Shown piece by piece: positions 1 to 21,955 of a stretch of 41,315 bases of DNA. A program made the translations under genes and the position numbers. Origin of the DNA: Actinomycetes bacterium (GTDB lineage: Bacteria > Actinomycetota > Actinomycetes > Propionibacteriales > Nocardioidaceae); contig JAUILS010000005.1 in the NCBI GenBank assembly GCA_030432975.1, positions 1 through 41,315 of the forward strand, in the 5' to 3' direction. The notes beneath the pieces were generated by a model. That model saw nothing but the letters and a program-made list of their open reading frames with translations. It ran no database searches and was not told the origin of the DNA. The number at the start of each line of letters is the position of its first letter. The first letter of the stretch is position 1.

Positions 1-2
1 TC

Positions 3-2131: not shown

Positions 2132-2168
2132 GCCCGGCCGAGCCCGGCTCCTCCTATGCCTCCCGTGG

Positions 2169-3002
2169 TCATGACGACTCGTCGCCCCATCGGCTCGCGC
2201 CGGCTGCGTCCTGACCGTGCTCGCTCAGAGCCGCGCCGAGGAAGCGGAAGGTCCACTCCTGAGCCAGGGCACGGTTCTCGGCGAACACGACCGGGACGCT
2301 CGGGTGCCGCACCTGACACTCGCCGAGCATGTCCGCGACCAGCCCGGGACGGACGTGGTCGAGCTTGAAGACCGACGAGTAGCGATCCTCCACGACCACG
2401 GCGGAGCGCGGCACCTCGGCCAGCTCCGCGAGCCGGTAGCCGAGGCGACCCGTGGTCAGGCTGGAGGCGAGGTCGCCGAGCGACTTGCGCTCGACCACGG
2501 CGAGGAGCTCGCCGTCGGCCTCGACGCCGTAGTCGCCGACGGGCAGGGCGCGACGCTCGGTCGACGCCTGCTGGTGGGAGAACTTCCAGGCGTAGCGCTC
2601 GCGCGTGTCGACCACGATGACGAGGCCCTCCATCCCCGACGCGCGGGCGGTGGGAAGCGCCACCTGAGGTCGCGCGGCCTTGGAGGTGCGCGCGGACTGC
2701 CAGAAGATCATCTCGCGGCCGCGCGCCCGGGCGATCACGAACTGCGAGCGACGCTCTCGCCGCCGGTCGACCACGATGTCGATCGCGGCACCCCGGCGCT
2801 GGCAGGTCACCAAGGGGACCTCCTCGACGATCTCCGCGTCGGCCGGCCAGCCCTCGTCGTGACGGTGGCAGTAGACCTTGCTGGCGCGCGGCCAGGTCTC
2901 CCGGGTGCGCAGCACGATGCCGTCCCCGAGCGGGATCCGGACGAGGTAGGGAAGGCTCGAGTCGGGGTCGGGGTTGCGGGCGATGAGCAGGACGTCGTCC
3001 AC
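2169..3002 (-). CDS. ERCC4-domain nuclease-like protein
   Basis: A 277-residue protein whose C-terminal half (about residues 127-262) is an ERCC4/XPF-type nuclease domain: VDTRER at 131-136, GDY at 156-158 and ERKSLGD at 171-177 form the GDX(n)ERKX3D metal-binding active site known from XPF/Mus81-type nucleases. The first 120 residues are a separate domain rich in Arg with a CHRHDEGW stretch and a Cys at about 67; I do not recognise it. No helicase or helix-hairpin-helix domain is attached. Start taken at GTG 3002; the open frame continues upstream but there overlaps the divergent GNAT gene. It probably acts on branched DNA, but neither substrate nor partner can be read from the neighbours, which are unrelated. 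Confidence 0.85.
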   Translation of the reverse strand: MDDVLLIARNPDPDSSLPYLVRIPLGDGIVLRTRETWPRASKVYCHRHDEGWPADAEIVEEVPLVTCQRRGAAIDIVVDRRRERRSQFVIARARGREMIFWQSARTSKAARPQVALPTARASGMEGLVIVVDTRERYAWKFSHQQASTERRALPVGDYGVEADGELLAVVERKSLGDLASSLTTGRLGYRLAELAEVPRSAVVVEDRYSSVFKLDHVRPGLVADMLGECQVRHPSVPVVFAENRALAQEWTFRFLGAALSEHGQDAAGASRWGDESS

Positions 3003-3056
3003 GCAGGCAGCGTACGCCGCCGGGGGCGCCGGGACGGGCCTGGAAGACTGGGCCCC

Positions 3057-4097
3057 GTGACGACGACCTCGCCGGGCCTGGCCGGCCTGCCGCCCGGCTG
3101 GGTGGCGCGGACGCCGGTGCGCGACGACGTACCCGCCCTGGCCGCGCTCACCACCGCCGTCCGCCGCACCGCCCACGACGCCGCGAGCGTCGACGAGGAG
3201 GCGGTGGAGGCGCTGGTGGTCGGGCCGGGGTCGTGGACGCGGCGCCAGCTGGTGGTCGACGACGCCGAGGACACCGTGCAGGCGTGGGTGAGCGTGCACG
3301 ACCGGGCCGCCGGTCGCACCATGGTGGACCTGGTGGTCGCCCCCGACCTCCCCGAGGGCGACGCGCTCGCGTCCGTGCTGCTCGCCTGGGTCCGCTCGGT
3401 GGCGCGCGAGATGGCGGCGCTGCGACTGCTGCCGAGCACCCAGCTCGACGCGAGCCCGTACGCCGACCAGCCGAGGCTGAAGCGATGGCTGACCGCCGAT
3501 GGCTACGCGAAGACGCGCACCTGGCTGCACCTCACCCGGCCGGTGCGCGACGCGGAGGAGCTGCCGCCGCCGCGCGAGGGCGTGCACCTGCGGCGGGTCG
3601 CGATGCACGAGGGCGACGACGGCGACGGCGACACCGGGATGCCCGTCGCCGAGGACATCCGGCTGGTGCACCTGATGCTGGAGGAGTCGTTCGCCGACCA
3701 CTTCAACAGCTATCGCGAGAGCTTCCCGGAGTTCGTGCAGCGGCTGCGCGAGGACCCGGGCCACCGCTGGGACCACTGGTGGATCGCGGAGGTCGACACC
3801 GACGACGGCCGGCTGCCCGGCGGCGCCCTGGTGTCCTCGCGGCTGACGCCCGACGACTCGGGGCGCGCGGGCAGTTATGTCGACTACATCGGCGTGCACC
3901 GCCGGGCTCGCGGCCGCGGCGTCGCCAAGGCGCTGCTGCACGCCGTCATCCGCGACGCCCACGACCGCGGCCGCGGCCGGGTCGACCTCGAGGTCGACGC
4001 CGACTCCCCGACCGGCGCCGACGGGCTCTACCGCTCGATGGGCTGGACCCTCGACCACGTCACGGAGTCCTGGCACGCCGACTGCCCCGTCGGCTGA
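3057..4097 (+). CDS. GNAT-family N-acetyltransferase (tandem GNAT)
   Basis: A 346-residue protein of the double-GNAT type. The C-terminal GNAT half contains YVDYIGVHRRARGRGVAKALL, in which RxxGxG/A binds the pyrophosphate of acetyl-CoA, and ends with YRSMGW typical of the last GNAT strands. The N-terminal half (residues about 10-160) has the fold length of a degenerate second GNAT domain. GTG 3057 is 54 bases from the divergent ERCC4 gene start, leaving a short shared promoter region. Substrate unknown; similar architecture occurs in mycothiol synthase MshD, but this protein lacks enough recognisable features to call it that. Confidence 0.85.
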   Translation: MTTTSPGLAGLPPGWVARTPVRDDVPALAALTTAVRRTAHDAASVDEEAVEALVVGPGSWTRRQLVVDDAEDTVQAWVSVHDRAAGRTMVDLVVAPDLPEGDALASVLLAWVRSVAREMAALRLLPSTQLDASPYADQPRLKRWLTADGYAKTRTWLHLTRPVRDAEELPPPREGVHLRRVAMHEGDDGDGDTGMPVAEDIRLVHLMLEESFADHFNSYRESFPEFVQRLREDPGHRWDHWWIAEVDTDDGRLPGGALVSSRLTPDDSGRAGSYVDYIGVHRRARGRGVAKALLHAVIRDAHDRGRGRVDLEVDADSPTGADGLYRSMGWTLDHVTESWHADCPVG

Positions 4098-4103
4098 GAC
4101 TCC

Positions 4104-4139
4104 GGCGGGGGCGCCGGCGGGGGCGCCGGCGGGGCCGGC
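4104..4139 (+). repeat. Three tandem 12-base GC-only units next to palindrome A1
   Basis: Two exact copies of GGCGGGGGCGCC (4104-4115, 4116-4127) and a degenerate third (4128-4139) lie directly after the GNAT stop and run into the left arm of palindrome A1. A different 12-base unit, also in three copies, abuts palindrome A3 at 13785-13820. Confidence 0.85.
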
Positions 4140-4183
4140 TACTGGTGCGTACGACGCACCAGGCGCGTCGTACGCACCAGTAG
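4139..4183. repeat. Palindromic repeat A, copy 1
   Basis: Perfect 19-bp inverted repeat, arm CTACTGGTGCGTACGACGC at 4139-4157, 7-base loop at 4158-4164, complementary arm at 4165-4183. It sits between the converging GNAT and membrane-protein genes, so it could act as a bidirectional terminator, although there is no T-run on either side. The same arms recur at 8412-8460 and 13739-13783 with different loops. Confidence 0.92.
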
Positions 4184-4202
4184 AGGGAGACCTGGGCGGC
4201 GG

Positions 4203-5057
4203 TCAGCCGCCGTCGTCGGTCCGCATGCCGTCGTCCCAGAGCTCGACGGACTGCAGCACCCAGAAGACGGCGAAGAGCACGATCAGCGTCAGCTCGATCC
4301 AGAAGACCCCGTTGTCGAGCCACCCTCGCCAGGTGGCGACACCGAGGACCACGCCCGCGAGCACCATGGCGAACGCCAGCTGCCCGTAGCGCGTGCGCCC
4401 GGCCCCTCGCACCTGCTCGCCGGCGACGCCCCAGGCGTTCCAGGCGACGACGGCAATGATGAAGACGAACATCACGATGGCGGCGGTGAAGTGCGCGCCG
4501 CACTCGAACGACGAGCGGCCGAGGAAGAACCACAGGCCGCCGGCCACCAGCAGCCCGGCCGAGATCAGCAGGCCGCCGCCGCGGGCGTGGTGGGGGTCGG
4601 CGGCGGCGGGCGCCTGCCGCCCGATGAGATAGGTCGCCAGCAGGCCGACGACGCCGACGAACAGGAGCGCCCACACGTTGTTGGCGATGTTGGCGCGCAC
4701 GTCGTCGGGCATGCCGGACGGACCGCAGCTGCCGGCGTACGGCGTCGGCACGAAGGCGACGACCGGTGCCAGCATCCCGGCCAGGTTGAGGAACGTGTCC
4801 TCCCAGGGAGTGTTGCCCTTGATCACGACCATGCACACGCCGATCGCGACCAGCGAGCTGACGAACACCGCACGGACCGGCGTGTAGTAGTAGTCGCTGA
4901 TCGAGGGCAGCAGATCGCCCCCGTCGGCCACCAGCTGCCGCCCGACCGACGCGCCCAGGAGCACGACCAGGCCCACCATCCCCACCCGGAGGTAGCGGTA
5001 GGTCTTGGTGAAGCGGTCGAGCCGCTCGGCCTGGGTGACGGGTGTGCTGGCGTTCAT
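4203..5057 (-). CDS. Polytopic membrane protein, function unknown
   Basis: A 284-residue integral membrane protein with about seven hydrophobic helices: RVGMVGLVVLLGASVG, a helix around AVFVSSLVAIGVCMVVI, one around LNLAGMLAPVVAFV, VWALLFVGVVGLLATYLIG, GGLLISAGLLVAGGLWFFLG, FTAAIVMFVFIIAVVAW and two C-terminal helices. Between helices 1 and 2 is a SISDYYYTPVR stretch. The ATG at 5057 is preceded by GGAGG at a good spacing, which fixes the start. It resembles DUF998-like actinobacterial membrane proteins but I cannot assign a family with certainty. It has its own promoter region and converges on the GNAT gene across palindrome A1. Confidence 0.8.
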   Translation of the reverse strand: MNASTPVTQAERLDRFTKTYRYLRVGMVGLVVLLGASVGRQLVADGGDLLPSISDYYYTPVRAVFVSSLVAIGVCMVVIKGNTPWEDTFLNLAGMLAPVVAFVPTPYAGSCGPSGMPDDVRANIANNVWALLFVGVVGLLATYLIGRQAPAAADPHHARGGGLLISAGLLVAGGLWFFLGRSSFECGAHFTAAIVMFVFIIAVVAWNAWGVAGEQVRGAGRTRYGQLAFAMVLAGVVLGVATWRGWLDNGVFWIELTLIVLFAVFWVLQSVELWDDGMRTDDGG

Positions 5058-5113
5058 GGTTCCTCCCGTGGGAGAGGAGGGGCGCCGCTCGCCGGGGATA
5101 CGTCGCCGCGACG

Positions 5114-5701
5114 TCAGCGCGGGTCGGCGCGCCCGCAGTGGGCGAGCAGCAGCGCCGCGGGGTCGCGGCGGACGACGGGGAGCACCGGGCCGAAGCGCGT
5201 GGGGCGGTCGGCGGCGGTGACGTGGCGCAGCGCCGGAGGGAGCAGCCCGGCGGCCAGCTCCGGAGGCAGGCCCCGCTCCGGAGCACAGACCTGGGCCACG
5301 TCCCAGCCGTGCACGGCGATCTCGAGGGCGGCGGCCTCGAGCAGCGTCTCGGCCGGCAGCGGCATCAGGCCGAGCAGGCACTCGTCGCGCCCGTCCGACC
5401 AGCCGCCGAGGACCCCGCAGCCGAGGTCGAGCAGGTGACCCGCCAGCAGCGCCGGGTCGCGCGGCAGGCCGGTGCGCGGCTCGGCCGGCACCACCCCGGC
5501 GGCCGCCTGGACGAACGCGGTGAACCCGTCGACCATGTGGCCGAGCAGGTCGCCGAGGTCCCAGGCGGAGCAGGGCGTCGACAGGTCGGGGGCGTGACCC
5601 GGCACGGCCGCCAGCACCGGGCGTGAGTAGGACAGCGCCCGCTCCAGCAGCTCGAGGGGTCGCTCGGTGGGTCGCGGCAGGGCCGCGGACGCGGCGTCCA
5701 C
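5114..5701 (-). CDS. DinB-like TIGR03086-type protein (mycothiol maleylpyruvate isomerase fold)
   Basis: A 195-residue protein of the DinB/mycothiol-dependent maleylpyruvate isomerase superfamily common in actinobacteria. It shows the characteristic early motif TPCSAWDLGDLLGHMVDG (residues about 37-55, with the metal-ligand type His in GHM) and the later EIAVHGWDVAQ motif. Such proteins are four-helix bundles that bind a divalent metal and in some cases use mycothiol as thiol cofactor. GTG 5701 lies six bases after the stop of the upstream sigma factor, so both are in one operon; sigma-factor/DinB pairs of this kind are frequent and the enzyme may be a direct target or helper of the sigma factor (inference). 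Substrate unknown. Confidence 0.85.
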   Translation of the reverse strand: MDAASAALPRPTERPLELLERALSYSRPVLAAVPGHAPDLSTPCSAWDLGDLLGHMVDGFTAFVQAAAGVVPAEPRTGLPRDPALLAGHLLDLGCGVLGGWSDGRDECLLGLMPLPAETLLEAAALEIAVHGWDVAQVCAPERGLPPELAAGLLPPALRHVTAADRPTRFGPVLPVVRRDPAALLLAHCGRADPR

Positions 5702-5706
5702 GACGC

Positions 5707-6750
<1,044 letters not shown>

Positions 6751-6902
6751 CGTGTCCTCCGGAGGTCGAGCCTAGGTCCCTGTCGCGAGTGCTGACCCAC
6801 CGCAGGCCCGAAAATCATCGCGCGCGGCTCGATGAGTCACCGATACGGTCCCGGTCGGAATGGAAGGACGGCGCCCGCCGTTCTCTTCCGTCAGGAGAAC
6901 CC

Positions 6903-8405
6903 ATGACCGCCACCCTCGGTGACTCACCCGTCGCCCCTCGCCCTGCCGGCCGCGTCCGCGGCACGGCGGCGCAGCCCTACCCGGTGCTGCGCTGGCTGAC
7001 CCTCGCCACGTTCGTGGTGATCCTCAACGAGACGCTGATGGTCAACGCCATCCCGCGGCTGATGACCCAGTTCGACGTCACGGCGCGCACCGGGCAGTGG
7101 CTGTCGACGGCGTTCATGCTGACCATGGCCGTGGTCATCCCGGTGACCGGGTGGTTCCTGCAGCGGGTCACCACCCGGCAGGCGTTCGCGCTGGCGATGG
7201 GGGTCTTCGTGGCGGGCACGCTGCTGGCCGCCGTGGCACCGGCGTTCTGGGTGCTCGTCGTCGCGAGGGTCGTGCAGGCCAGCGGCACCGCGGTGATGCT
7301 GCCGCTGCTGATGACCACGCTGATGACGATCGTCCCCGTGCACGACCGCGGTCGGGTGATGGGCAACGTCACGCTCGCCATCTCCGTCGCGCCGGCCCTG
7401 GGGCCGACCGCGGCCGGCGTCGTGCTGCAGGTCGCCAGCTGGCGCTGGCTGTTCTTGGTGATGCTGCCGATCGCGGGCGGGGTCGCGCTGGCGGCCCTGC
7501 GCCGCCTCGAGAACGTGGGCGAGCAGCGGTCCGGTTCCGTCGACGTGCTCTCCGTCGTGCTGGCGGGGCTGGGCTTCGGCTCCCTGGTCTACGGCCTCAG
7601 CGGCTTCGGCGCCCCCGAGGCGCCGGCGGTGTCGCCGTGGGCGCTGGTCGGGGGCGGCGCCGCCGTGGTCGCCCTCTTCGTGCTGCGTCAGCGACGGCTG
7701 CAGCGCCGGCCCGCCGGCCCGCTGCTCGACCTGCGCACCCTCGGCCACCGCACCTACGCCGTGGCCCTGGTCCTCCAGGCCGTCGCGTTCCTGACGATGA
7801 TGGGCGCGATGATCCTGGTGCCCCTCTATCTCCAGGGGCTGCGCGAGCTCACCCCGCTCCAGACCGGGCTGCTGGTCGCCCCCGGCGGGTTGGCGATGGG
7901 GTTGGCCGGCCCCCGGGTCGGCCGGGTCTTCGACCGGGTCGGCGGCCGCCCGCTGGTCATCCCCGGCACGCTCCTCGTCGTCACGGGCCTGGGCGGGCTC
8001 GGCTTCGTCGGTGTCGCGACGCCGTACGCCGTGCTGGTGGGGCTGCACCTGCTGCTGATGCTCGGCCTCGCGCTGGTGATGACGCCGACGTTCACGATCA
8101 GCCTCGGCTCGCTGCCGATGCACCTCTACTCCCACGGCAGCTCGCTGCTCGGCACCGCCCAGCAGGTCGCCGCCGCCGTCGGCACCGCGCTCTCGGTCAC
8201 GGTGCTGTCCGCCCGGTCCGCCTCGCTGGCCGCCGCCGGGGTCGACCCGGTGGAGGCGTTCGTCGGCGGCTTCCGCGCGGCCTTCCTGGTGGCCGCCGGG
8301 CTGGGCCTGGTCACGGTGGCGCTCGCCTGCGTGCTGCCCGGCCGGCCCACGCCTCCCGAGGTCGAGGGCGAGCGCGGCTCCTCCGAGGAGCCGACCGCCG
8401 GGTGA
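6903..8405 (+). CDS. DHA2-family MFS multidrug efflux transporter
   Basis: A 500-residue, roughly 14-helix major facilitator of the drug:H+ antiporter 2 (EmrB/LmrB) type. Motifs: LNETLMVNAIPRLM in helix 1, the DHA family motif around TARTGQWLSTAFMLTMAV in helix 2, GTAVMLPLLMTTLM in helix 4 and the antiporter motif C-like ALGPTAAGVVLQVASWRWLF in helix 5. ATG 6903 has AGGAG at 6892-6896. It is divergent from the sigma factor with 152 bases between the starts, so the sigma factor may drive it. Substrate unknown. Followed by palindrome A2. Confidence 0.93.
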   Translation: MTATLGDSPVAPRPAGRVRGTAAQPYPVLRWLTLATFVVILNETLMVNAIPRLMTQFDVTARTGQWLSTAFMLTMAVVIPVTGWFLQRVTTRQAFALAMGVFVAGTLLAAVAPAFWVLVVARVVQASGTAVMLPLLMTTLMTIVPVHDRGRVMGNVTLAISVAPALGPTAAGVVLQVASWRWLFLVMLPIAGGVALAALRRLENVGEQRSGSVDVLSVVLAGLGFGSLVYGLSGFGAPEAPAVSPWALVGGGAAVVALFVLRQRRLQRRPAGPLLDLRTLGHRTYAVALVLQAVAFLTMMGAMILVPLYLQGLRELTPLQTGLLVAPGGLAMGLAGPRVGRVFDRVGGRPLVIPGTLLVVTGLGGLGFVGVATPYAVLVGLHLLLMLGLALVMTPTFTISLGSLPMHLYSHGSSLLGTAQQVAAAVGTALSVTVLSARSASLAAAGVDPVEAFVGGFRAAFLVAAGLGLVTVALACVLPGRPTPPEVEGERGSSEEPTAG

Positions 8406-8411
8406 GGGAAC

Positions 8412-8460
8412 GTCTACTGGTGCGTACGACGCGCCGGATGCGTCGGACGCACCAGTAGAC
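8412..8460. repeat. Palindromic repeat A, copy 2
   Basis: Arms of 21 bases at 8412-8432 and 8440-8460 with one A/G mismatch and a 7-base loop at 8433-8439. The core of the left arm is identical to copies A1 and A3. It begins seven bases after the stop of the MFS gene and could end its transcript. Confidence 0.9.
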
Positions 8461-8538
8461 ATCGGGCGGGCGGCGCGAGCGCCTCCCGGATCGCGGACGG
8501 CCGATTTGCGTTCACCCGGGGCGCTCCACCAGGGTGTG

Positions 8539-8557
8539 TCGTGACCGTTTCGTGACC
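8539..8557. promoter_or_regulatory. Direct repeat upstream of the lysozyme-like gene
   Basis: Two copies of TCGTGACC at 8539-8546 and 8550-8557, centre-to-centre 11 bases. Direct repeats with one helical turn spacing are the usual target form of OmpR-type response regulators; MtrA, which controls cell-wall hydrolase genes in actinobacteria, is a reasonable candidate. The assignment is inference, the repeat is seen. Confidence 0.5.
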
Positions 8558-8628
8558 TCGGCTCTCATCGGACGCGGTCGGCGCCCACCCCCCGAGCACC
8601 ACCAGCGCCCGCAGGAGCACCCACCCCC

Positions 8629-9390
8629 GTGTCGAAGCACCAGGCCGCGCGCCACCGCGGCGCGCCCGCCCGAGCGCGCGCGAGCGCGCCCGCACGCGCG
8701 ACGTCGCCGGCCGCGACCGGCGGCAGCCATCGCGCCACCGCGCCGGCGCGCCCGCCCCGTCGCACGGCGGCGCTGACCGGGCTGGCCGTCGCCGCCACCG
8801 GCGTCGTGGTGACCGGCGGCGTGCTCGCCACCGCGTCGCAGCCGCTCCCTCCGGTCGAGGCCGCCTCGTCCGCCAGCACCGCGACGTCGGTCGCGGGAGC
8901 AGGCACCCCCGGCGGCGACATCGACGAGACCGCGCTCGCCGAGCAGCTGGCCGCCCGCGAGAGTGACCCGGTCTCCCGCTCCGACCGCCGCGACGAGCTC
9001 GACCGGCGCGCCGTCGTCGACCCCACCAAGGCAGCGGCCCTCGACACCGCCGACACCCCGGCCGAGGCCGGCGCGCAGGACCTCTCCGACGCCGACCCGC
9101 GCGACATCGCCCGCGCGCTGCTGCCGGAGTTCGGCTTCGGCGCCGACCAGTTCTCCTGCCTCGACGCGCTCTACGTCAGCGAGAGCAACTGGCGGGTCGA
9201 CGCCGACAACCCGACGTCGTCGGCGTACGGCATCCCCCAGGCGCTGCCCGGCTCCAAGATGGCCTCGGCCGGCGCCGACTGGGCGACCAACCCGGAGACG
9301 CAGATCCGCTGGGGGCTCGGCTACATCAAGGCGCGCTACGGCACTCCCTGCAGCGCCTGGTCCTTCAAGCAGGGCCACAACTGGTACTGA
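8629..9390 (+). CDS. Secreted lysozyme-like (transglycosylase-type) protein
   Basis: A 253-residue exported protein. The first 45 residues are Arg/Ala/Pro rich and cytoplasmic, then a signal-anchor helix (LTGLAVAATGVVVTGGVLA), a low-complexity linker, and a C-terminal lysozyme-superfamily domain of about 80 residues starting ARALLPEFGFGADQFSCL. That domain has the SESNWRVDADNP motif with the likely catalytic Glu, YGIPQALPG, and the end WSFKQGHNWY, as in Rpf-like/aggregation-promoting-factor C-terminal domains that cleave peptidoglycan. Two Cys (FSCL and TPCSAW) probably pair. GTG 8629 with GCAGGAG about 11 bases upstream. Expected role: cell-wall remodelling during growth or separation. Confidence 0.88.
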   Translation: MSKHQAARHRGAPARARASAPARATSPAATGGSHRATAPARPPRRTAALTGLAVAATGVVVTGGVLATASQPLPPVEAASSASTATSVAGAGTPGGDIDETALAEQLAARESDPVSRSDRRDELDRRAVVDPTKAAALDTADTPAEAGAQDLSDADPRDIARALLPEFGFGADQFSCLDALYVSESNWRVDADNPTSSAYGIPQALPGSKMASAGADWATNPETQIRWGLGYIKARYGTPCSAWSFKQGHNWY

Positions 9391-9408
9391 CGTGCGGCCG
9401 ACCCGCGG

Positions 9409-9885
9409 TCAGCGCCCGCGGTTGCGGCGCCGGACCGGCCGCGGCGGCTTGCCACCGAGGTACGACGCCCCGGGGTCGACCAGGAACCCCTGGGCCAGCG
9501 CCTCGCGGCCGACCAGCATCCGGAACCCCATCTTGTCGCGGTTGGTGAGCGTCACCTCGGCCGGCACGGTGCGCCCCACGAGGGTGACGTCCATCGCGAC
9601 GACGTAGCGCTTCTGCGCGTGCCCCGACGAGCTGCGCACCCGCCGTCGGTCGAGCACCGGCGCGGACCACTCCACCGGGTCGCCGTCGTTGGTCTGCCAG
9701 GGGTGGATCCAGAACCGCACCCAGGTCTGCCCGTCGCGCTCCTCCTCGACGAGGTCGAAGGCGTGCAGCGCCGAGGTCGTCGCGCCGGTGTCGATCTTGG
9801 CCTTGATCCAGCCGACCCCGGCGTCGGGCAGACCGACCCACTCGCGCCACCCGACCAGCGTCGGCTCCTCGGCGTCCTGGGCCAC
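9409..9885 (-). CDS. RimB/RimK-associated retropepsin-like protease
   Basis: A 158-residue protein of the ATP-dependent zinc protease / RimB family (PF05618-type). IKAKIDTGATTSALHAF near residues 27-43 carries the Asp-Thr-Gly of a retropepsin-like aspartic protease, and FRMLVGREAL is the family's second conserved block. In bacteria with RimK, such proteins trim or regulate polyglutamate tails added by RimK. GTG 9885 is preferred because longer versions read into low-complexity sequence and the divergent promoter region. It faces the RimK gene head-to-head with 122 bases between, which supports a joint role. Basic C-terminal tail (RPVRRRNRGR). Confidence 0.85.
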   Translation of the reverse strand: MAQDAEEPTLVGWREWVGLPDAGVGWIKAKIDTGATTSALHAFDLVEEERDGQTWVRFWIHPWQTNDGDPVEWSAPVLDRRRVRSSSGHAQKRYVVAMDVTLVGRTVPAEVTLTNRDKMGFRMLVGREALAQGFLVDPGASYLGGKPPRPVRRRNRGR

Positions 9886-9889
9886 GGCG

Positions 9890-9974
9890 CCATCCAACCA
9901 CGCGCCCCACCCTCGAGGACGCCGGCCCGGCCAGTGGCGGCCCGTCGAGCGGCGGACCGAGGATGGTTGGATGG
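9890..9974. promoter_or_regulatory. Divergent rimB-like/rimK control region with an 11-bp inverted repeat
   Basis: CCATCCAACCA at 9890-9900 and its exact complement TGGTTGGATGG at 9964-9974 lie symmetrically just upstream of the two divergent genes, 63 bases apart. This would suit a dimeric regulator bridging both promoters, or mirrored promoter elements. Confidence 0.5.
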
Positions 9975-10007
9975 GCCAGTCGGCCACCCCACCAGGCAAG
10001 GACGCCC

Positions 10008-11198
10008 ATGAAGCTCGCCATCCTGTCGCGCGCGCCCCGCGCGTACAGCACCCAACGGCTGCGCAGCGCGGCGGTGGAGCGGGGCCACGACGTCAAGGTG
10101 CTCAACACCCTGCGGTTCGCCATCGACCTGTCCGGCGACGAGCCGGACCTGCAGTTCCGCGGCAAGCCGCTGTCGGACTACGACGCGATCCTGCCCCGGA
10201 TCGGCAACTCCATCACCTACTTCGGCACCGCCGTGGTGCGGCAGTTCGAGCAGATGGACGTCTACACCCCCAACCCGTCGTACGGCATCGCCAACTCCCG
10301 CGACAAGCTGCGCGCGACCCAGATCCTGTCCCGCCACGGCATCGGGATGCCGGCCACGACGTTCGTCCGCGACCGGGCCGACGTGATCCCCGGCATCAAG
10401 CGGGTCGGCGGGGCGCCGGTCGTGATCAAGCTGATCGAGGGCACCCAGGGGATCGGGGTGATCCTGGCCCCGACGATGAAGGTCGCCGAGGCGATCATCG
10501 AGACGCTGCAGAGCACCAGCCAGCAGGTGCTGATCCAGCGGTTCGTCGAGGAGAGCCGCGGCCGCGACGTGCGCGCCCTGGTCGTCGGCGACCGCGTGGT
10601 CGCGGCGATGCGGCGGGTGGCGAAGGGCGACGAGTTCCGCTCCAACGTCCACCGCGGCGGCAGCGTCGAGCGGGTCGACCTCGACGAGGACTACCAGCAG
10701 GCCGCGGTCCGCTCCGCCCAGATCATGGGCCTCAAGGTGGCCGGCGTCGACATGCTCGAGGGCAACGACGGCCCGCTGGTGATGGAGGTCAACTCCTCGC
10801 CCGGCCTGCAGGGCATCGAGGAGGCCACCAACCTCGACGTGGCCGGCGCGATCATCGACTACATCGCCAACCAGGTCGCCTTCCCCGAGATCGACGTGCG
10901 GCAGCGGCTGTCGGTCTCCACCGGGTACGGCGTCGCGGAGCTCTTCGTCCACGCCGGCGCGGAGCTCGTGGGCCAGACGATCGCGGAGTCGGGGCTGAGC
11001 GATCGCGACATCACGGTGCTGACCCTCAACCGCGGCACCCGGGTGATCCCCAACCCGCGGGCCAGCCACCGCCTGGAAGCGGAGGACCGGCTGCTGTGCT
11101 TCGGCAAGCTCGAGGAGATGCGGTCGATGATCCCCACCCGCAAGAAGCGGCGGGCGCGGGTCAAGAAGCTGCCCGACCAGCCGATCCTGGAGGACTGA
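10008..11198 (+). CDS. rimK: RimK-family alpha-L-glutamate ligase with C-terminal RCK_C/TrkA_C domain
   Basis: A 396-residue ATP-grasp ligase. Residues 1-290 correspond to the whole length of ordinary RimK (about 300 residues): N-terminal domain, ATP-grasp from about 95 with VVIKLIEGTQGIGV (138-151), IQRFVEES (176-183), and VMEVNSSPGLQGIE (258-271) carrying Mg-ligands Glu and Asn. RimK adds glutamates to the C-terminus of ribosomal protein S6 in E. coli. Residues about 303-375 form an extra domain (GYGVAELFVHAGAELVGQTI ... DRLLCFGKLEEM) that looks like the TrkA_C/RCK_C ligand-binding domain of K+ channels and transporters, followed by a basic tail. This suggests ligand control, for example by a nucleotide. 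ATG 10008 with AAGGA at 9998-10002. Its 3' end overlaps the converging gene by 38 bases. Confidence 0.9.
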   Translation: MKLAILSRAPRAYSTQRLRSAAVERGHDVKVLNTLRFAIDLSGDEPDLQFRGKPLSDYDAILPRIGNSITYFGTAVVRQFEQMDVYTPNPSYGIANSRDKLRATQILSRHGIGMPATTFVRDRADVIPGIKRVGGAPVVIKLIEGTQGIGVILAPTMKVAEAIIETLQSTSQQVLIQRFVEESRGRDVRALVVGDRVVAAMRRVAKGDEFRSNVHRGGSVERVDLDEDYQQAAVRSAQIMGLKVAGVDMLEGNDGPLVMEVNSSPGLQGIEEATNLDVAGAIIDYIANQVAFPEIDVRQRLSVSTGYGVAELFVHAGAELVGQTIAESGLSDRDITVLTLNRGTRVIPNPRASHRLEAEDRLLCFGKLEEMRSMIPTRKKRRARVKKLPDQPILED

Positions 11199-11949
11199 GC
11201 CGACGGCGGTCGGTCGCGGCCACCACGTCGGCGGCGCGCCGACGCCGCAGGGCCACGTCGACGCCCCAGAGCACGGCGGCCACGAGGAAGCCGAAGAGCA
11301 GGATCATCGCGAGCGTGGTGAACACCGGCCCGTAGCCGCGGTCGACGACGTTGACGAAGTCGTAGGGGTAGGCGTCGATCACCGCGCCCCGCGCCAGCAT
11401 CCAGCCGATCCAGAGCAGCGGGACGACCAGGGCCAGCGGCACCAGCCGGCCGGTGACCCAGCCGCGCGGCCCCCACACCAGCCAGACCAGCAGCGTCAGC
11501 AGCGGCGTGACGACGTGCAGGATCGGGTCGGTGAGCCGCGACCAGCCGGTGACGACGGCGGTCGGCGCCAGCAGCAGCTGGTAGACGATCGCGGTCACCG
11601 TGATCATCAGCAGCCCGTCGAGGCGCAGCACCCGGCGCACCAGGGTGGGCCGCAGCGGCCGGGCGAGGAGCAGGGTCACCGACACCGCCACCGCGACGTT
11701 GGACCAGATCGTGAAGTAGGAGAACGTGTCGAGCACCCGCGCGGCGGCGCCCGCCGCGCCCTCCGGGTGACCGCCGTAGAGGCCCGGCTCGACCGGCAGC
11801 ACGTCGTACCACCCCATGCCGGAGAGGAAGGCCGTCAGCACCACGCCGCCCCAGGCGACCACCGCGTTGACGGCGTACGCCGCGCGGGCGGCGGGGCTGG
11901 GCGTGAGCGCGTCGGCGGCGGCGGCGGTGGCGTCGGCTGCGGCGGTCAT
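11161..11949 (-). CDS. Pr6Pr-family membrane protein
   Basis: A 262-residue membrane protein with about six helices (AVVAWGGVVLTAFLSGMG, TFSYFTIWSNVAVAVSVTLLL, LLMITVTAIVYQLLLAPTAV, LLTLLVWLVWGPRG and two more). The TFSYFTIWSN motif, the HVVTPLLTLLVWL helix and AYPYDFVNV are typical of the actinobacterial Pr6Pr membrane proteins, whose function is unknown. ATG 11949 follows a short divergent region shared with the SHOCT gene. The last 38 bases overlap the end of rimK tail-to-tail. Poly-Ala N-terminus is low complexity. Confidence 0.85.
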   Translation of the reverse strand: MTAAADATAAAADALTPSPAARAAYAVNAVVAWGGVVLTAFLSGMGWYDVLPVEPGLYGGHPEGAAGAAARVLDTFSYFTIWSNVAVAVSVTLLLARPLRPTLVRRVLRLDGLLMITVTAIVYQLLLAPTAVVTGWSRLTDPILHVVTPLLTLLVWLVWGPRGWVTGRLVPLALVVPLLWIGWMLARGAVIDAYPYDFVNVVDRGYGPVFTTLAMILLFGFLVAAVLWGVDVALRRRRAADVVAATDRRRLSPPGSAGRAAS

Positions 11950-12017
11950 CGGGGGAGTATGACGCGGCCGGTGCGAATCCGTCGACCGGCGCCGGCGCGC
12001 CGACCTACAGTTCTCCC

Positions 12018-12593
12018 ATGACGGGGGATCTGGGGACGGCTGCGACGGGGCTACATCCGGGCGCGCTCGCCATGACGGGCGGCGGTGGGCCCAACGACCC
12101 GCCGGACTGGTGCTTCGAGCCCCAGCAGGACGGCTTCATGCCGGAGTGCGCCTACGTCGACGGCGAGTGGATCGGCGGCGACGGCGGGGGCTTCGGCGCG
12201 GGCTTCGGGTCGGGCGTCGACGAGACGGCCGGCGTGATGGGCGGCTTCGCGGTCTTCTTCGTGCTGGTCCTGCTGCTGGCGATCGGCGGCGCCGTGTGGC
12301 GGGTGACGACCGCTCGCCGGCTGGCCCGCAACGCCGGCATGGACGAGGGCGACGCCACGGCCATGACCCTGCTGACCGACAACGGCCTGGAGTCGACCTA
12401 CCTCGCCGCCAACCTGCGGCCGCCGGCCTCCCCGGCGCCGGCACCCTCCGCCCCCGCCGCCCCGGCCGAGGCGCCCGAGCCGCCGCGCAGCAGCGCCGAC
12501 CGGCTCCGCGAGCTCCAGGACCTGCTCGCCGCCGGCCTGGTCACCCAGGAGGAGTACGACGCCCGGCGCCGGGCGATCCTCGACTCGCTGTAG
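12018..12593 (+). CDS. Membrane-anchored SHOCT-domain protein
   Basis: A 191-residue protein with an N-terminal, Gly/Asp-rich segment containing two Cys (about 33 and 44), one transmembrane helix (GGFAVFFVLVLLLAIGGAVW), a cytoplasmic middle part, an Ala/Pro linker and a C-terminal SHOCT motif (DRLRELQDLLAAGLVTQEEYDARR). SHOCT is a short oligomerisation module found at the ends of many membrane proteins. A later start at ATG 12072 is possible. Function unknown. Followed by a perfect palindrome at 12609-12628. Confidence 0.8.
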   Translation: MTGDLGTAATGLHPGALAMTGGGGPNDPPDWCFEPQQDGFMPECAYVDGEWIGGDGGGFGAGFGSGVDETAGVMGGFAVFFVLVLLLAIGGAVWRVTTARRLARNAGMDEGDATAMTLLTDNGLESTYLAANLRPPASPAPAPSAPAAPAEAPEPPRSSADRLRELQDLLAAGLVTQEEYDARRRAILDSL

Positions 12594-12608
12594 GCGCGCC
12601 CCGACGTT

Positions 12609-12628
12609 CCGTCCGGACGTCCGGACGG
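12609..12628. terminator. Perfect 20-bp GC-rich palindrome after the SHOCT gene
   Basis: CCGTCCGGACGTCCGGACGG reads the same on both strands and begins 16 bases after the SHOCT stop. It can form a short hairpin or bind a dimeric protein. There is no T-run, so a terminator role is only likely, not shown. Confidence 0.5.
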
Positions 12629-12695
12629 CGTCCGGTCGGCCGCTCGCCCGAAAACCCGATGCGCCCGAGGGCGCGGCGGCGTACGGTTCTGCGCT

Positions 12696-12827
12696 GGTGA
12701 GATCAGTGGCAGGGCCGGTGTTCCGGCCCGGTCCCACGCGTCGTACCTCACCACCGCAACCTCTGCGACAGGTAGCGGGGAGCCCTTCACTCCCTTGTCG
12801 GTTCGACTCCGACTCCTCGCGGTGGTG
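12696..12827 (+). ncRNA. Candidate structured RNA with a tRNA-like acceptor/T-arm element
   Basis: Stem 1: GGTGAG (12696-12701) with CTCACC (12747-12752), enclosing GTGG/CCAC (12706-12709/12734-12737) and a 7-bp GGGCCGG-tgtt-CCGGCCC hairpin (12712-12729). Downstream, GCGGGGA (12775-12781) pairs with TCCTCGC (12814-12820; one G-U), stacked on GTCGG-TTCGACT-CCGAC (12797-12813), which is a canonical tRNA T-arm; D and anticodon arms are replaced by 15 bases. CACCACCGC (12749-12757) can instead pair with GCGGTGGTG (12819-12827), which excludes both stem 1 and the end of the acceptor-like helix, giving a switch-like layout upstream of the SPFH gene. Not a known family to me. Confidence 0.45.
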
Positions 12828-13008
12828 ACCGGTGGCGACTCGCGGCGCCGTGCCCTGCGGCGGTCCCGGTCAGCACGACGGGCCCAGCCCCGCGCGGCGT
12901 CGTGGCCACCCGTCACCACCGCCCCCGACCCCACCGCCCCTGACCCCTGCCATCCACCCGCCCACCAGCCACCCCGCTTCGGCGCGACGACCAGAAGGAG
13001 GAGCCGAG

Positions 13009-13701
13009 ATGACCCCGACGATCCTGCGACTGCGGACGACCCGTGTGCAGCCCTGGCAGCTCTGCCTGGAGCGGGTGCCCGGCCGGCCCACCGTGGTGCT
13101 CGGCCCAGGCAAGCACCGCCGGCGCCGGGCCGCGACCTACCAGCTGCTCGACGCGCGCGAGCAGGTGCTCACGGTCGCGCCCCAGGAGGTGCTCACCGCC
13201 GACGGTGTGACGGTGCGCGTCACGGCGGTCGCCCGGTGGACGGTCGGCGACGCGGTGGCCTTCACCGAGAAGGTCACCGACCCGCTCGGCCAGGTCTACC
13301 TGGCGATCCAGCTGGCGCTGCGGGAGGCACTCGCGACCCGCGACGCCGAGGCGCTGGTGCGGGCCCCGCGGGCCCCGCGGGCGACGCTGACCGACGAGAC
13401 CGTCGAGCAGCTGCGCGTGGCCGCGACCGGGGTGGGCGTCCGGCTGGTCGAGGTCCTGGTCAAGGACGTCGTCCTGCCGGCGGACCTGCGGGCGGCGTAC
13501 GCCGAGCTCGTCGTCGGCCGCCAGCGCGCCCAGGCGCAGCTGGAGGCCGCGCGGGCCGAGACCGCCGCGCTGCGGTCGATGGCCAACGCCGCCACGCTGC
13601 TCGACGAGCACCCCGCGCTGGCTCGGCTCCGGCTGGTCCAGGCACTGCCCGTCGGCTCGCGCGTCGAGCTGGTCCACGACTCCGGCGACCGGCCCGACTG
13701 A
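13009..13701 (+). CDS. SPFH/band 7 domain protein (slipin-like)
   Basis: A 230-residue protein with an SPFH (stomatin/prohibitin) domain: TVAPQEVLTADGVTVRVTAVARWTV (about 45-75) is the classic band 7 strand pair, followed by VYLAIQLALREALATRDAEAL and the VRLVEVLVKDVVLPADLRAAYAELV helix leading into a short Ala/Glu-rich coiled coil (residues about 165-200). There is no N-terminal transmembrane hairpin, so membrane attachment would have to be peripheral or by a partner. ATG 13009 with a perfect AGGAGG site. Slipins scaffold membrane microdomains and often pair with an NfeD protease partner; none is seen here. Its unusual 5' leader carries the structured RNA candidate. Confidence 0.85.
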   Translation: MTPTILRLRTTRVQPWQLCLERVPGRPTVVLGPGKHRRRRAATYQLLDAREQVLTVAPQEVLTADGVTVRVTAVARWTVGDAVAFTEKVTDPLGQVYLAIQLALREALATRDAEALVRAPRAPRATLTDETVEQLRVAATGVGVRLVEVLVKDVVLPADLRAAYAELVVGRQRAQAQLEAARAETAALRSMANAATLLDEHPALARLRLVQALPVGSRVELVHDSGDRPD

Positions 13702-13738
13702 GGGGGCAGCGTCCCCCGGGAGGCCTGGGGGGAGATGT

Positions 13739-13783
13739 CTACTGGTGCGTACGACGCACCCAGTGCGTCGTACGCACCAGTAG
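13739..13783. repeat. Palindromic repeat A, copy 3
   Basis: Arms 13739-13757 and 13765-13783 are identical in sequence to those of copy A1. Here the stem can extend by two pairs to 21 bp with a three-base loop. It lies between the SPFH gene and the small secreted protein, both on the plus strand. Confidence 0.92.
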
Positions 13784-13784
13784 C

Positions 13785-13820
13785 CGCGTCGGGGCGCGCG
13801 TCGGGGCGCGCGTCGGGGCG
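13785..13820 (+). repeat. Three tandem 12-base units next to palindrome A3
   Basis: CGCGTCGGGGCG occurs at 13785-13796, 13797-13808 and 13809-13820 without a mismatch, directly after palindrome A3. Copy number and unit length equal the repeat at A1, but the sequence differs. Confidence 0.88.
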
Positions 13821-13860
13821 CGCGCGGGAACCGCCGCTCCGCACCGGCCGTCCCACCCAC

Positions 13861-14277
13861 ATGCGACGACTGCTGCTGCCCGCCCTTCTCCTCGGCCTCG
13901 CGGTGGCGCCCTTCCCGCAGCAGCCGGCATCGGCGGACTGCGGAGGGCCGACGATCCTCGCCGAGGGCCTCGACCTGCGTCGGGGTGAGGAGGTCACCGT
14001 CGGCGGCCGGTCGTTCGTCGACGGCTGCCGGGACATGATGACCTGCAGTGGGGTGCTCGGCTGCTCGCGGTGTGAATACACCGACCCACCGCCGGCCCCG
14101 ATGCGGGACGTGGAGCTCCGGCTGGAGCAGGGGCGCCGGTCGTGGTCGCTCGGCACGGCGGACGCCGACGACGCCGGCGAGGCGACCTGGGTGGTCAACG
14201 TCCCCGAGGACGCCCGGCGCGGCCCGGCCCGGCTCGTGGTCGACGACTACCCGAAGGAGAGAGTGCGCATCCGCTGA
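13861..14277 (+). CDS. Small secreted Cys-rich protein
   Basis: A 138-residue exported protein. Signal peptide MRRLLLPALLLGLAVAPF with cleavage probably after ASA (about residue 25). The mature part has five to six Cys in a row of short spacings (DCGG, DGCRD, TCSG, GCSRC) and then a beta-rich region of about 70 residues (MRDVELRLEQGRRSW, ATWVVNVPEDARRGPARLVV) resembling an Ig-like or beta-sandwich half. I recognise no family. The Cys cluster suggests disulfides or a bound metal. ATG 13861; no strong ribosome binding site (the 12-base repeats lie just upstream). Confidence 0.75.
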   Translation: MRRLLLPALLLGLAVAPFPQQPASADCGGPTILAEGLDLRRGEEVTVGGRSFVDGCRDMMTCSGVLGCSRCEYTDPPPAPMRDVELRLEQGRRSWSLGTADADDAGEATWVVNVPEDARRGPARLVVDDYPKERVRIR

Positions 14278-14297
14278 GGCGACGCTCCGTGTGTCAG

Positions 14298-14338
14298 CGG
14301 GGAGGGCTTCCGTCACCCCATGACGGCAACCCTCCCCG
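14298..14338 (+). terminator. Hairpin terminator after the secreted protein gene
   Basis: CGGGGAGGG (14298-14306) pairs with CCCTCCCCG (14330-14338), and inside it CCGTC pairs with GACGG, giving a strong stem with an internal loop 20 bases after the stop codon. No T-run, as usual in high-GC actinobacteria. Confidence 0.7.
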
Positions 14339-14416
14339 ATCCTCACCCGCGCTCCCGATCTGCGATCCCCACCCACGCCGAGTGCGCCGCCCGGCCGTCG
14401 GCCCTAGGCTCACCTC

Positions 14417-14938
14417 ATGGCCACCCTCGTGCTGACCCTGCTGGGCACCGACCGGGCGGGACTCGTCTCCGCCGTGTCCGGGGTGATCTCGGAGCACGGA
14501 GGCAGCTGGGAGCGCAGCCAGATGGCGCACCTGGCGGGGACCTTCGCCGGAGTTGTCGAGGTCGCGGTGCCGACGACCGGGGTCGACGCCCTGGTCGCCG
14601 CCGTCGAGGGACTGGGCGCCCAGGGCCTACGGGTGACCGTCGAGCGCACCGCCGACGAGCCCGAGCGCGACGAGGGCTCCCGGCTGGCGCTTCATCTGGT
14701 CGGCGCCGACCGGCCCGGCATCGTCGCGGAGATCTCCTCGCTGCTCGCCGAGCACGGCGTCAACGTCGAGGAGCTCAGCACCGACGTGAGCGACGCCCCG
14801 ATGGCGGGCGGCACTCTCTTCGAGGCCGACGCCGTCGTCGTGGTCCCCGCGGGCGCCGACACCGCTGCGCTCCGGGCCGGCCTCGAGGCGCTCGCCGACG
14901 AGCTGATGGTCGACCTCGACCTGCACGACACTGACTGA
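14417..14938 (+). CDS. Double ACT-domain protein (GcvR-like)
   Basis: A 173-residue protein of two ACT domains. The first starts VLTLLGTDRAGLVSAVSGVISEHG, the second LHLVGADRPGIVAEISSLLAEHG; both show the D-R-x-G-x-V ligand loop of ACT domains. This matches the GcvR-like group of stand-alone ACT proteins, which bind amino acids (glycine for GcvR of E. coli) and regulate by protein contact. No gcv gene is nearby, so the target is unknown. ATG 14417. Followed directly by hairpin B1. Confidence 0.87.
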   Translation: MATLVLTLLGTDRAGLVSAVSGVISEHGGSWERSQMAHLAGTFAGVVEVAVPTTGVDALVAAVEGLGAQGLRVTVERTADEPERDEGSRLALHLVGADRPGIVAEISSLLAEHGVNVEELSTDVSDAPMAGGTLFEADAVVVVPAGADTAALRAGLEALADELMVDLDLHDTD

Positions 14939-14946
14939 CTCCCGGC

Positions 14947-14997
14947 GGGTCGCGTGCCTGAGCCGTCCCAGCCCCCGCGGGGCGGGGCACACGACCC
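14947..14997. repeat. Hairpin repeat B, copy 1
   Basis: Arms GGGTCGCGTGCC (14947-14958) and GGCACACGACCC (14986-14997) pair with one mismatch; inside lies CCCCGCGGGG. The element is 51 bases, same length as copy B2, with about 46 of 51 positions equal. It starts nine bases after the ACT gene and may terminate it. Confidence 0.87.
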
Positions 14998-15057
14998 CCC
15001 AGCCCGGTCCGAAAACCGCGCGACGCCCCCCGAGCGAGCCTGAGACACTCGGCCGCG

Positions 15058-21847: not shown

Positions 21848-21860
21848 CCGCCGCGGCGAC

Positions 21861-21911
21861 GGGTCGTGTGCCTCAGCCGTCCCACTCCCCGCGGGGCCGG
21901 GCACACGACCC
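21861..21911. repeat. Hairpin repeat B, copy 2
   Basis: Arms GGGTCGTGTGCC (21861-21872) and GGCACACGACCC (21900-21911) pair perfectly over 12 bp, with the self-complementary CCCCGCGGGG at 21887-21896 inside. Lies 13 bases after the RibD-C stop. Homologous along its whole length to B1. Confidence 0.9.
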
Positions 21912-21955
21912 GCCGGGCACCGGCCGGTAACGTGCCGAGCAGGAGGCGATGACGG

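What the first reader, a model, noticed from the sequence alone, without database searches (positions are those of the whole stretch)
4139..13783. Dispersed palindrome family A with near-invariant 19-bp stem
Three copies within 10 kb (4139-4183, 8412-8460, 13739-13783). The arms CTACTGGTGCGTACGACGC are identical in two copies and differ by one base pair in the third, while the 7-base loops differ completely. All lie just after stop codons. Conserved stem with free loop argues for a duplicated element or a selected double-strand/hairpin signal (REP-like element, terminator family, or protein-binding dyad), not chance.
Basis: seen in the sequence. Interest (0 to 1): 0.7.

Follow-up and report, generated by a model that had tools for sequence, protein, structure and literature searches.

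The report
Gene-end palindromes paired with nuclease gene
The three palindromes belong to a family of about 40 copies found in one bacterial species, nearly always between genes, and they appear to be tied to a nuclease-like gene that keeps its own palindrome beside it, much as known REP repeats do with a different enzyme.

Summary
The window's genome (Nocardioides, inferred) holds 86 arm hits and 38-39 palindromes of "family A". Of 32 clusters, 31 are centred outside called genes, 28 of these beside at least one gene 3' end; one lies inside a kinase gene. No comparable family is in the other 214 genus genomes searched.

It behaves like a REP family, but the REP enzyme (Y1 transposase) was not found. 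Instead, palindrome families in this genome sit beside genes for an AbiEi-type DNA-binding protein fused to a Vsr/I-Bth0305I-like nuclease domain. Of six such genes, five adjoin palindromes of five different families, four on both sides; A lies on the 5' side only. In 30 of 80 named actinobacterial loci the same palindrome stands on both flanks, against 32 of 2000 cross-pairs and 2 of 247 control genes. In another species such a palindrome has 8 copies, two flanking the gene.

I infer a REP-like system served by a different nuclease; nuclease-driven copying is not shown. The link of A to its particular gene is the weakest step. Operator or terminator roles remain possible.

The parts
4139..4183 (.). 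family A palindrome, copy 1 (19-bp arms, perfect), between convergent genes 2217-4097(+) and 4203-5381(-)
8412..8460 (.). family A palindrome, copy 2 (21-bp arms, one mismatch), starting 8 bp (19-bp arm) after the stop of an MFS transporter gene (6789-8405)
13739..13783 (.). family A palindrome, copy 3 (21-bp arms, perfect), 37 bp after the stop of a Band_7/SPFH gene (12832-13701)
14298..14338 (.). palindrome of family W, the family that flanks a second AbiEi-nuclease gene (contigs C99/C198) on both sides
14947..14997 (.). palindrome of family V, the family that flanks an AbiEi-like remnant on contig C122
21857..21915 (.). second family V palindrome in the window

Best explanation
Family A is a species-specific, REP-like family of about 40 mostly extragenic palindromes. 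Its dedicated partner is most likely the 335-aa gene on contig C9 of the same genome, which belongs to a family of proteins with an AbiEi-type DNA-binding module (residues 1-195 of the modelled relative) fused to a Vsr/I-Bth0305I-like (EDxHD, PD-(D/E)XK fold) nuclease domain (about 199-302). Many members of this actinobacterial family keep a palindrome of their own beside them. Proposed working: the AbiEi part binds the palindrome (inferred; AbiEi proteins bind pairs of 23-bp inverted repeats), the nuclease part nicks or cuts DNA (inferred from the fold and invariant residues), and palindrome copies spread to gene ends within that genome and are kept alike there (dispersal and within-genome likeness are seen in the sequences; the nuclease as the cause is inferred). 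It works like REP/RAYT with an unrelated enzyme. The step A-to-C9-gene is itself inferred, from proximity on one side, shared anatomy and the rule seen in the other families.
For: (1) Dispersal: 86 arm hits, 38 complete palindromes read, 39 in the whole genome; of the other 214 genomes of the genus, 9 have one match each, all at 3 mismatches, 205 none. (2) Location: of 31 clusters centred outside called genes, 9 are convergent, 19 tandem, 3 divergent (p = 0.011 for the shortage of divergent). (3) Own genome: six AbiEi-nuclease genes, five adjoining palindromes of five families: C9 with A (two tandem copies ending 246 bp upstream of the start I chose), C132 with T, C284/C293 with S, the C122 remnant with V, C99/C198 with W (about 50 identical nt on both sides). 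(4) Flank test, palindromes sharing 10 nt or more on both sides: 30 of the 80 best of 203 named relatives, in Nocardioides, Mycolicibacterium/Mycobacterium, Gordonia, Mumia, Humibacillus, Terrabacter; among the 30 best loci of each kind in genus genomes, A-type 15 and T-type 22 (the two A-type sets overlap). Controls: 1/400 random windows, 32/2000 cross-pairs, 2/247 genes of like length. (5) In genome G188 the gene-flanking palindrome has 8 copies, 2 flanking the gene, 0 in 10 other genomes. (6) T inner arms: 0.83 identity within genomes against 0.51 between, 0 of 1000 permutations. (7) Family A resembles A-type rather than T-type flank palindromes: length 45, where 49/60 and 22/30 A-type ones measure 39-49 and 42/44 T-type ones 57 or more; CCWGG centre in 15/38 A, 15/60 and 11/30 A-type, 1/44 T-type. 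(8) Model of the relative L334, pLDDT 94: 199-302 matches I-Bth0305I (Z 11.2) and Vsr (Z 9.6), 1-195 matches AbiEi 6Y8Q (Z 9.7); E203, D235, E244, D246, H251 invariant in 56 of 56 aligned relatives and their counterparts in 26 of 26 including the C9 protein.
Against: The C9 gene has A only on its 5' side; the next A is 1.1 kb downstream, beyond an AP-endonuclease gene and inside the 3' part of a kinase gene, so this locus fails the both-flank test (L225). Chance alone would put an A cluster beside one of 3-6 such genes perhaps 5-10% of the time (my estimate). 15 of 30 A-type, 8 of 30 T-type and 50 of 80 named loci fail the flank test. In tandem gaps A is nearer the stop than the next start in only 13 of 19. 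In 7 of 16 aligned T-type proteins, all of the TAGTCCAGTG clade, Leu replaces the presumed catalytic Glu although the palindromes persist there, so cutting may not be needed. The T-type gene keeps one chromosomal place (167 of 171 pairs among 19 of the 30 loci share a neighbour gene), so it is not itself hopping. T arms of G017 and G012 are nearly as alike between (0.72) as within G017 (0.75). C324 has no palindrome and family B (28 palindromes) no partner gene. The Foldseek E-value of the nuclease match is only 0.53. A-type and T-type profiles are weakly alike (probability 46%). No insertion or empty site was seen. Nothing biochemical is shown.
Confidence: 0.65

Rival explanations
1. The palindromes are binding sites only: the AbiEi-type protein acts as a repressor or chromosome-organising protein, first on its own operator, and the dispersed copies form a network of sites. 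Copying came about by ordinary recombination, not by the nuclease.
For: AbiEi and Rv2827c bind 23-bp inverted repeats upstream of their own genes (PMC7319586, passages), close in size to the half sites of A. Rv2827c and AbiEi are the top Foldseek matches. A stands only upstream of the C9 gene. The presumed catalytic Glu is lost in 7 of 16 T-type rows.
Against: Divergent (promoter-bearing) gaps are poor in A copies (3 of 31). The same palindrome also stands downstream of the gene in many loci. Presumed catalytic residues are invariant in the A-type.
Confidence: 0.23
2. The palindromes are transcription terminators or mRNA-end hairpins selected for structure; repeats arise by local copying.
For: Strong hairpins, location near gene ends, and other palindromes at the same orthologous 3' end in relatives: 7 of 16 with palindrome score 12 or more within 160 nt (no control was run for this count).
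Against: None of the three is among the terminator-like sites. 11 changed stem pairs of 570, none compensated, 9 broken, 2 G-U. It does not explain the species-specific sequence or the gene association.
Confidence: 0.1
3. Family A is an ordinary MITE or REP of an unseen transposase and lies beside the C9 gene by chance.
For: A is one-sided at C9. The assembly is 92% complete in 358 contigs, so a transposase could be missing. One A copy lies inside a kinase gene, as a mobile element might.
Against: Four other families in the same genome flank such genes on both sides, and A shares length and centre motif with palindromes of the same gene subfamily elsewhere. No Y1 transposase was found; other transposase families were not searched.
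Confidence: 0.14

Closest known systems
REP/RAYT and BIME (REP-associated tyrosine transposases; PMC2817692, passages read)
   Same: Short extragenic palindromes with a mismatched part in the stem, species-specific, many copies, and a dedicated gene flanked by its own palindromes.
   Different: No Y1 transposase found in the genome; the candidate partner is an AbiEi-Vsr-type protein; no GTAG head before the hairpin; tandem arrays are direct, judged by eye, not alternating; about 40 copies, fewer than the usual >100 named in the abstract.
AbiEi/AbiE type IV toxin-antitoxin operators, including Rv2827c (PMC7319586, passages)
   Same: N-terminal half has the AbiEi fold (6Y8Q Z 9.7; PADLOC AbiEi E down to 4e-15); AbiEi binds long inverted repeats next to its gene.
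   Different: Extra nuclease domain; no AbiEii match among the Pfam results of 10 neighbour genes of 6 loci; palindromes also downstream and dispersed over the genome.
EDxHD homing endonucleases such as I-Bth0305I, and Vsr (PMC3943268, passages)
   Same: Catalytic-domain fold (Z 11.2 and 9.6); a long target of nearly 60 bp bound by a dimer is described for I-Bth0305I.
   Different: Not seen in an intron or intein; fused to an AbiEi module; associated with dispersed palindromes.
DUF559 / MTES_1575 REase families (Pfam)
   Same: Weak matches of the C-terminal part of the C9 protein (E 0.13 and 0.054, below the curated cut-offs).
   Different: No palindrome association is known to me for these families; the five T-type proteins scanned match nothing in Pfam at E 1.

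Membership tests
REP/RAYT | short extragenic palindrome in many copies | tested here: met
   86 arm hits, 38-39 palindromes; 31 of 32 clusters centred outside called genes, 1 inside a kinase gene
REP/RAYT | Y1 tyrosine transposase (PF01797) in the genome | tested here: not met
   0 matches in the own genome; 5 of 14 control genomes ring; assembly 92% complete
REP/RAYT | dedicated gene flanked by two copies of the palindrome | tested here: inconclusive
   seen for T, S, V, W beside AbiEi-nuclease genes but A is only on the 5' side of the C9 gene
REP/RAYT | GT(A/G)G head at the 5' side of the hairpin | tested here: not met
   A begins CTAC and ends GTAG; no conserved GTAG before the hairpin
BIME | regularly spaced palindromes in alternating orientation | tested here: not met
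   arrays regular (period about 72 for A, 62-63 or 73 for B) but asymmetric copies point the same way, judged by eye
AbiE toxin-antitoxin | AbiEi antitoxin fold | tested here: met
   PADLOC AbiEi models for two A-type relatives and one T-type protein; 6Y8Q Z 9.7 for the model of L334
AbiE toxin-antitoxin | adjacent AbiEii nucleotidyltransferase toxin gene | tested here: not met
   10 neighbour genes of 6 loci: 9 match unrelated Pfam families, 1 matches none; two ORFs downstream of the C9 gene are AP endonuclease-like and kinase
EDxHD/Vsr nuclease fold | catalytic-domain fold with conserved acidic/His residues | tested here: met
   I-Bth0305I Z 11.2 over 94 residues, Vsr Z 9.6 over 97; E203, D235, E244, D246, H251 (numbering of L334) invariant in 56 of 56; their catalytic role is inferred
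homing endonuclease | cuts an empty target and copies its own element into it | not testable with these tools
   no empty site seen; needs biochemistry
intrinsic terminator | hairpin followed by T-run | tested here: not met
   none of the three palindromes among the sites found in window 1-16000

The most novel reading that the evidence does not exclude
Actinobacteria carry a second, independent kind of REP system: AbiEi-Vsr/EDxHD nucleases, each with its own co-diverging palindrome that the nuclease spreads by a homing-like copying reaction to gene ends. One genome can host at least five such nuclease-palindrome pairs side by side without mixing, and family A of this window is one of them.
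Probability: 0.4. Interest if true: 0.9.

Novelty: new variant of a known kind. Interest (0 to 1): 0.8.

Why it matters
REP palindromes have, as far as I know, one described dedicated enzyme, the Y1 transposase RAYT, which its describers placed in gammaproteobacteria for want of homologs in other major lineages (PMC2817692, passage). A large actinobacterial family with an unrelated nuclease would suggest that this kind of element arose more than once. It would also point to a function for abundant unannotated AbiEi/DUF559-like genes (the A-type query matched 173 of 209 genomes), and it offers many cognate protein-palindrome pairs to compare at once. That makes the old question of how REPs spread, and why hosts keep the gene, directly testable.

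Tried and rejected
Rfam at gathering threshold: no family on the window and only a tmRNA on 140 kb of loci with palindromes. Y1 transposase: none; no other transposase family was searched. Solved structures by sequence: none at E 1. PHROGs: none for three proteins at E 0.1. NCBIfam: none for three proteins. Plasmids: no match; phages: one partial match, 41% of the query (one A-type protein as query). C324, a sixth AbiEi-nuclease-like gene of the genome, has no palindrome of score 11 or more in its locus. Family B: no partner gene; a motif search of the fetched own-genome loci gave none beside B. Empty sites could not be read: the nearest relatives are 73-77% identical in the gene compared. A scan of genome contigs for the A core gave nothing, but records of the own genome may be left out there. 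Single-arm search of 57 relatives: six have one match each with up to 1 mismatch, one of them, G055 of another family, exact; none has a pair. Odd palindrome length, at first taken as an A-type mark, is shared by T-type ones (39 of 44 odd) and was dropped. Mitoribosomal, TnsA and other rows are taken as shared fold only.

Rows left out: 26 of 30 A-type proteins were aligned, 14 of 30 T-type plus two own-genome proteins, 56 of 80 named loci, 19 of 30 T-type loci; T elements of 5 of 6 genomes, those in fetched loci. One search set aside 1 of 32 clusters for want of a neighbour; one search shows that it lies in a kinase gene. By the overlap rule six A clusters touch a called ORF.

Papers: none held DUF559 + palindromic + repetitive, and none extragenic palindromic + Actinobacteria + RAYT. 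The listings show no title about an AbiEi or Vsr-like gene flanked by dispersed palindromes, but several were cut (15 of 4,689, 10 of 72, 15 of 36, 6 of 13). Seen: passages of PMC2817692, PMC7319586, PMC3943268; other papers only as listings. That DUF559 proteins are Vsr-like and that AbiEi paralogues abound was recalled before the calls that bear on it.
Full report
Check of the observation. The three palindromes are present as described apart from the loops. Copies 1 and 3 have perfect 19-bp arms; copy 2 has one changed base. They stand 41, 8 and 37 bp after stop codons. Loops are not free: over 38 genome copies they follow RCCWGGY, so the palindrome runs almost to its centre.

The family in its genome. 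The window is contig C288 of a 3.43-Mb genome in 358 contigs, 92% complete. The arm has 45 + 41 hits with up to 3 mismatches, against 1 + 0 for the reversed pattern. I read 38 complete palindromes. Fifteen stem positions are nearly invariant. Next to them is a two-base bubble: both sides AC in 12 copies, GA against AC on one side or the other in 16, other combinations in 10, never GA on both. Some copies stand in direct tandem arrays of period about 72 bp, and some are joined at 28-29 bp to a second palindrome family, B. Of 32 clusters, 31 are centred outside genes called by my own simple caller (4 of them overlap an ORF edge by 26-86 nt): 9 between convergent, 19 between tandem and 3 between divergent genes; in tandem gaps 13 of 19 are nearer the stop. 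The one left, C9:3812-3856, lies in frame near the 3' end of a protein kinase gene, in the stretch before a last hydrophobic segment. About 90% of the sampled genome is coding. Of 570 stem pairs, 11 are changed, none on both sides, 9 broken and 2 G-U: the copies decay without compensation, as spread DNA copies would.

Species range. Of 215 genomes of the genus searched, counting its own, only the own genome has the family (39 palindromes); 9 others have one match each, at 3 mismatches. Single arms with up to 1 mismatch occur once each in six of 57 other genomes, once exactly.

Other families. A de novo palindrome scan of 400 kb from each of two relatives and 292 kb of the own genome gave 29, 39 and 15 palindromes of score 14 or more, 0 in resampled sequence. 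One family, T (TAGTCCAGTG ... CACTGGACTA), has exact-arm copies in 6 of 58 genomes: 23 in the own genome, 18, 17, 8, 22 and 18 in five others. Its inner arms are alike within genomes (0.83) and less so between (0.51), 0 of 1000 permutations (42 elements of 5 genomes); the pair G017-G012 is an exception (0.72).

The partner gene. In four genomes T palindromes directly flank a gene for a protein of about 345 aa without a Pfam match. The own genome has three T-type genes: C132 (T on both sides), C284/C293 (two pieces at contig ends, family S on both sides) and C324 (none). Beside the tandem A pair on C9 is a 335-aa gene of a related kind, with an AbiEi_4 match (E 5.6e-5, just under the cut-off) and weak REase matches. 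Its own-genome relatives are C99/C198 (two pieces), flanked on both sides by about 50 identical nucleotides holding a family W palindrome, and a remnant on C122 flanked by family V. W and V also occur in the window, at 14298-14338, 14947-14997 and 21857-21915. So five of six such genes adjoin palindromes of five different families.

Survey. A-type relatives were found in 173 of 209 and T-type in 177 of 209 genus genomes (limit E 1e-10). Of the 30 best loci of each, 15 A-type and 22 T-type have palindromes on both flanks (400 bp) sharing 10 nt or more; random windows gave 1 of 400. None of the 60 reading frames has an internal stop; one runs to a contig end. In named genomes, 30 of the 80 A-type loci kept (of 203 found) pass, in Nocardioides, Mycolicibacterium/Mycobacterium, Gordonia, Mumia, Humibacillus and Terrabacter; cross-paired flanks give 32 of 2000, and genes of 250-420 aa give 2 of 247. 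The two A-type sets overlap. In G188 the gene-flanking palindrome has 8 copies; 2 flank the gene, the loci of the other 6 show no such gene within 1.5 kb, and 10 other genomes have none. A-type flank palindromes are mostly 39-49 long (49 of 60; 22 of 30), T-type ones 57 or more (42 of 44); a CCWGG centre is in 15 of 60, 11 of 30 and 1 of 44, and in 15 of 38 of family A. Family A, 45 long, goes with the A-type.

The protein. An AlphaFold2 model of the A-type relative L334 (56 aligned sequences) has pLDDT 94. Residues 1-195 match AbiEi antitoxin (Z 9.7, rmsd 4.0, 183 aligned), 199-302 match the I-Bth0305I homing endonuclease domain (Z 11.2, rmsd 2.2, 94 aligned) and Vsr (Z 9.6, rmsd 2.3, 97 aligned); by Foldseek the AbiEi and Rv2827c matches are significant (E 5e-4 to 7e-4) and the I-Bth0305I match is not (E 0.53). 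The presumed active-site residues are invariant in 56 of 56. In the T-type, 7 of 16 aligned proteins have lost the Glu. AbiEi proteins bind pairs of 23-bp inverted repeats at their own promoters (PMC7319586), much the size of A. Of ten neighbour genes of six A-type loci, nine match unrelated Pfam families and one none; no toxin. The T-type gene keeps one chromosomal place (167 of 171 pairs of 19 loci share a neighbour), the A-type less so (97 of 435 pairs of 30 loci), and the C9 gene shares a neighbour with none of the other 29.

How it most likely works. Shown: dispersal, location near gene ends, within-genome likeness, one gene kind beside many palindrome families, and the two-domain fold. 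Inferred: binding by the AbiEi part, cutting by the nuclease part, and copying of palindromes as a result. The pairing of A with the C9 gene rests on proximity on one side, shared anatomy and the rule seen in the other families.

Against known systems. It works like REP/RAYT, but the Y1 transposase, the GTAG head and alternating BIME order were tested and not met. It is therefore not filed as REP/RAYT. The nearest reading is a REP-like system with a different enzyme.

Noticed in passing
own genome, e.g. C329:2444-2613, C236:3408-3677, C240:27794-27900 (loci L092, L042, L089): A second palindrome family B (RCGTCATACG NNN CGNNCG n6 CGNCCG NNN CGTATGACGY, 28 copies of one size in the loci read), in direct tandem arrays of period 62-63 or 73, often joined to A at 28-29 bp; no partner gene found.
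   Followed up: partly
own genome C9:3812-3856 (L095): One A copy lies in frame inside the 3' part of a protein kinase gene and is translated as a linker before a final hydrophobic segment, recalling palindromic elements that insert in reading frames.
   Followed up: partly
window 12832-13701 3' end and its relatives L111-L126: At the orthologous gene end relatives carry other palindromes (7 of 16 with score 12 or more within 160 nt, no control), as if this gene end were a repeated target or needed some hairpin.
   Followed up: partly
L265-L283 (T-type loci): The T-type gene keeps one chromosomal place across species while the outer arms of its palindromes differ between species (TAGTCCAGTG, TAGTCCACCG, TAGTCCGGTG).
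   Followed up: partly
L265, L266, L268, L272, L274, L276, L278: These T-type proteins have Leu in place of the presumed catalytic Glu, so they may bind without cutting.
   Followed up: no
C99 end, C198 start, C293 start, C284 end: Two of the AbiEi-nuclease genes are split exactly at contig ends of the assembly.
   Followed up: no
own genome L184:15859-15923 and L177:6555-6611: A further repeated palindrome, TGTTTGGGTCCAAACGTCAAC...GACGTTTGGACCCAAACA, seen twice in the sampled part of the own genome.
   Followed up: no
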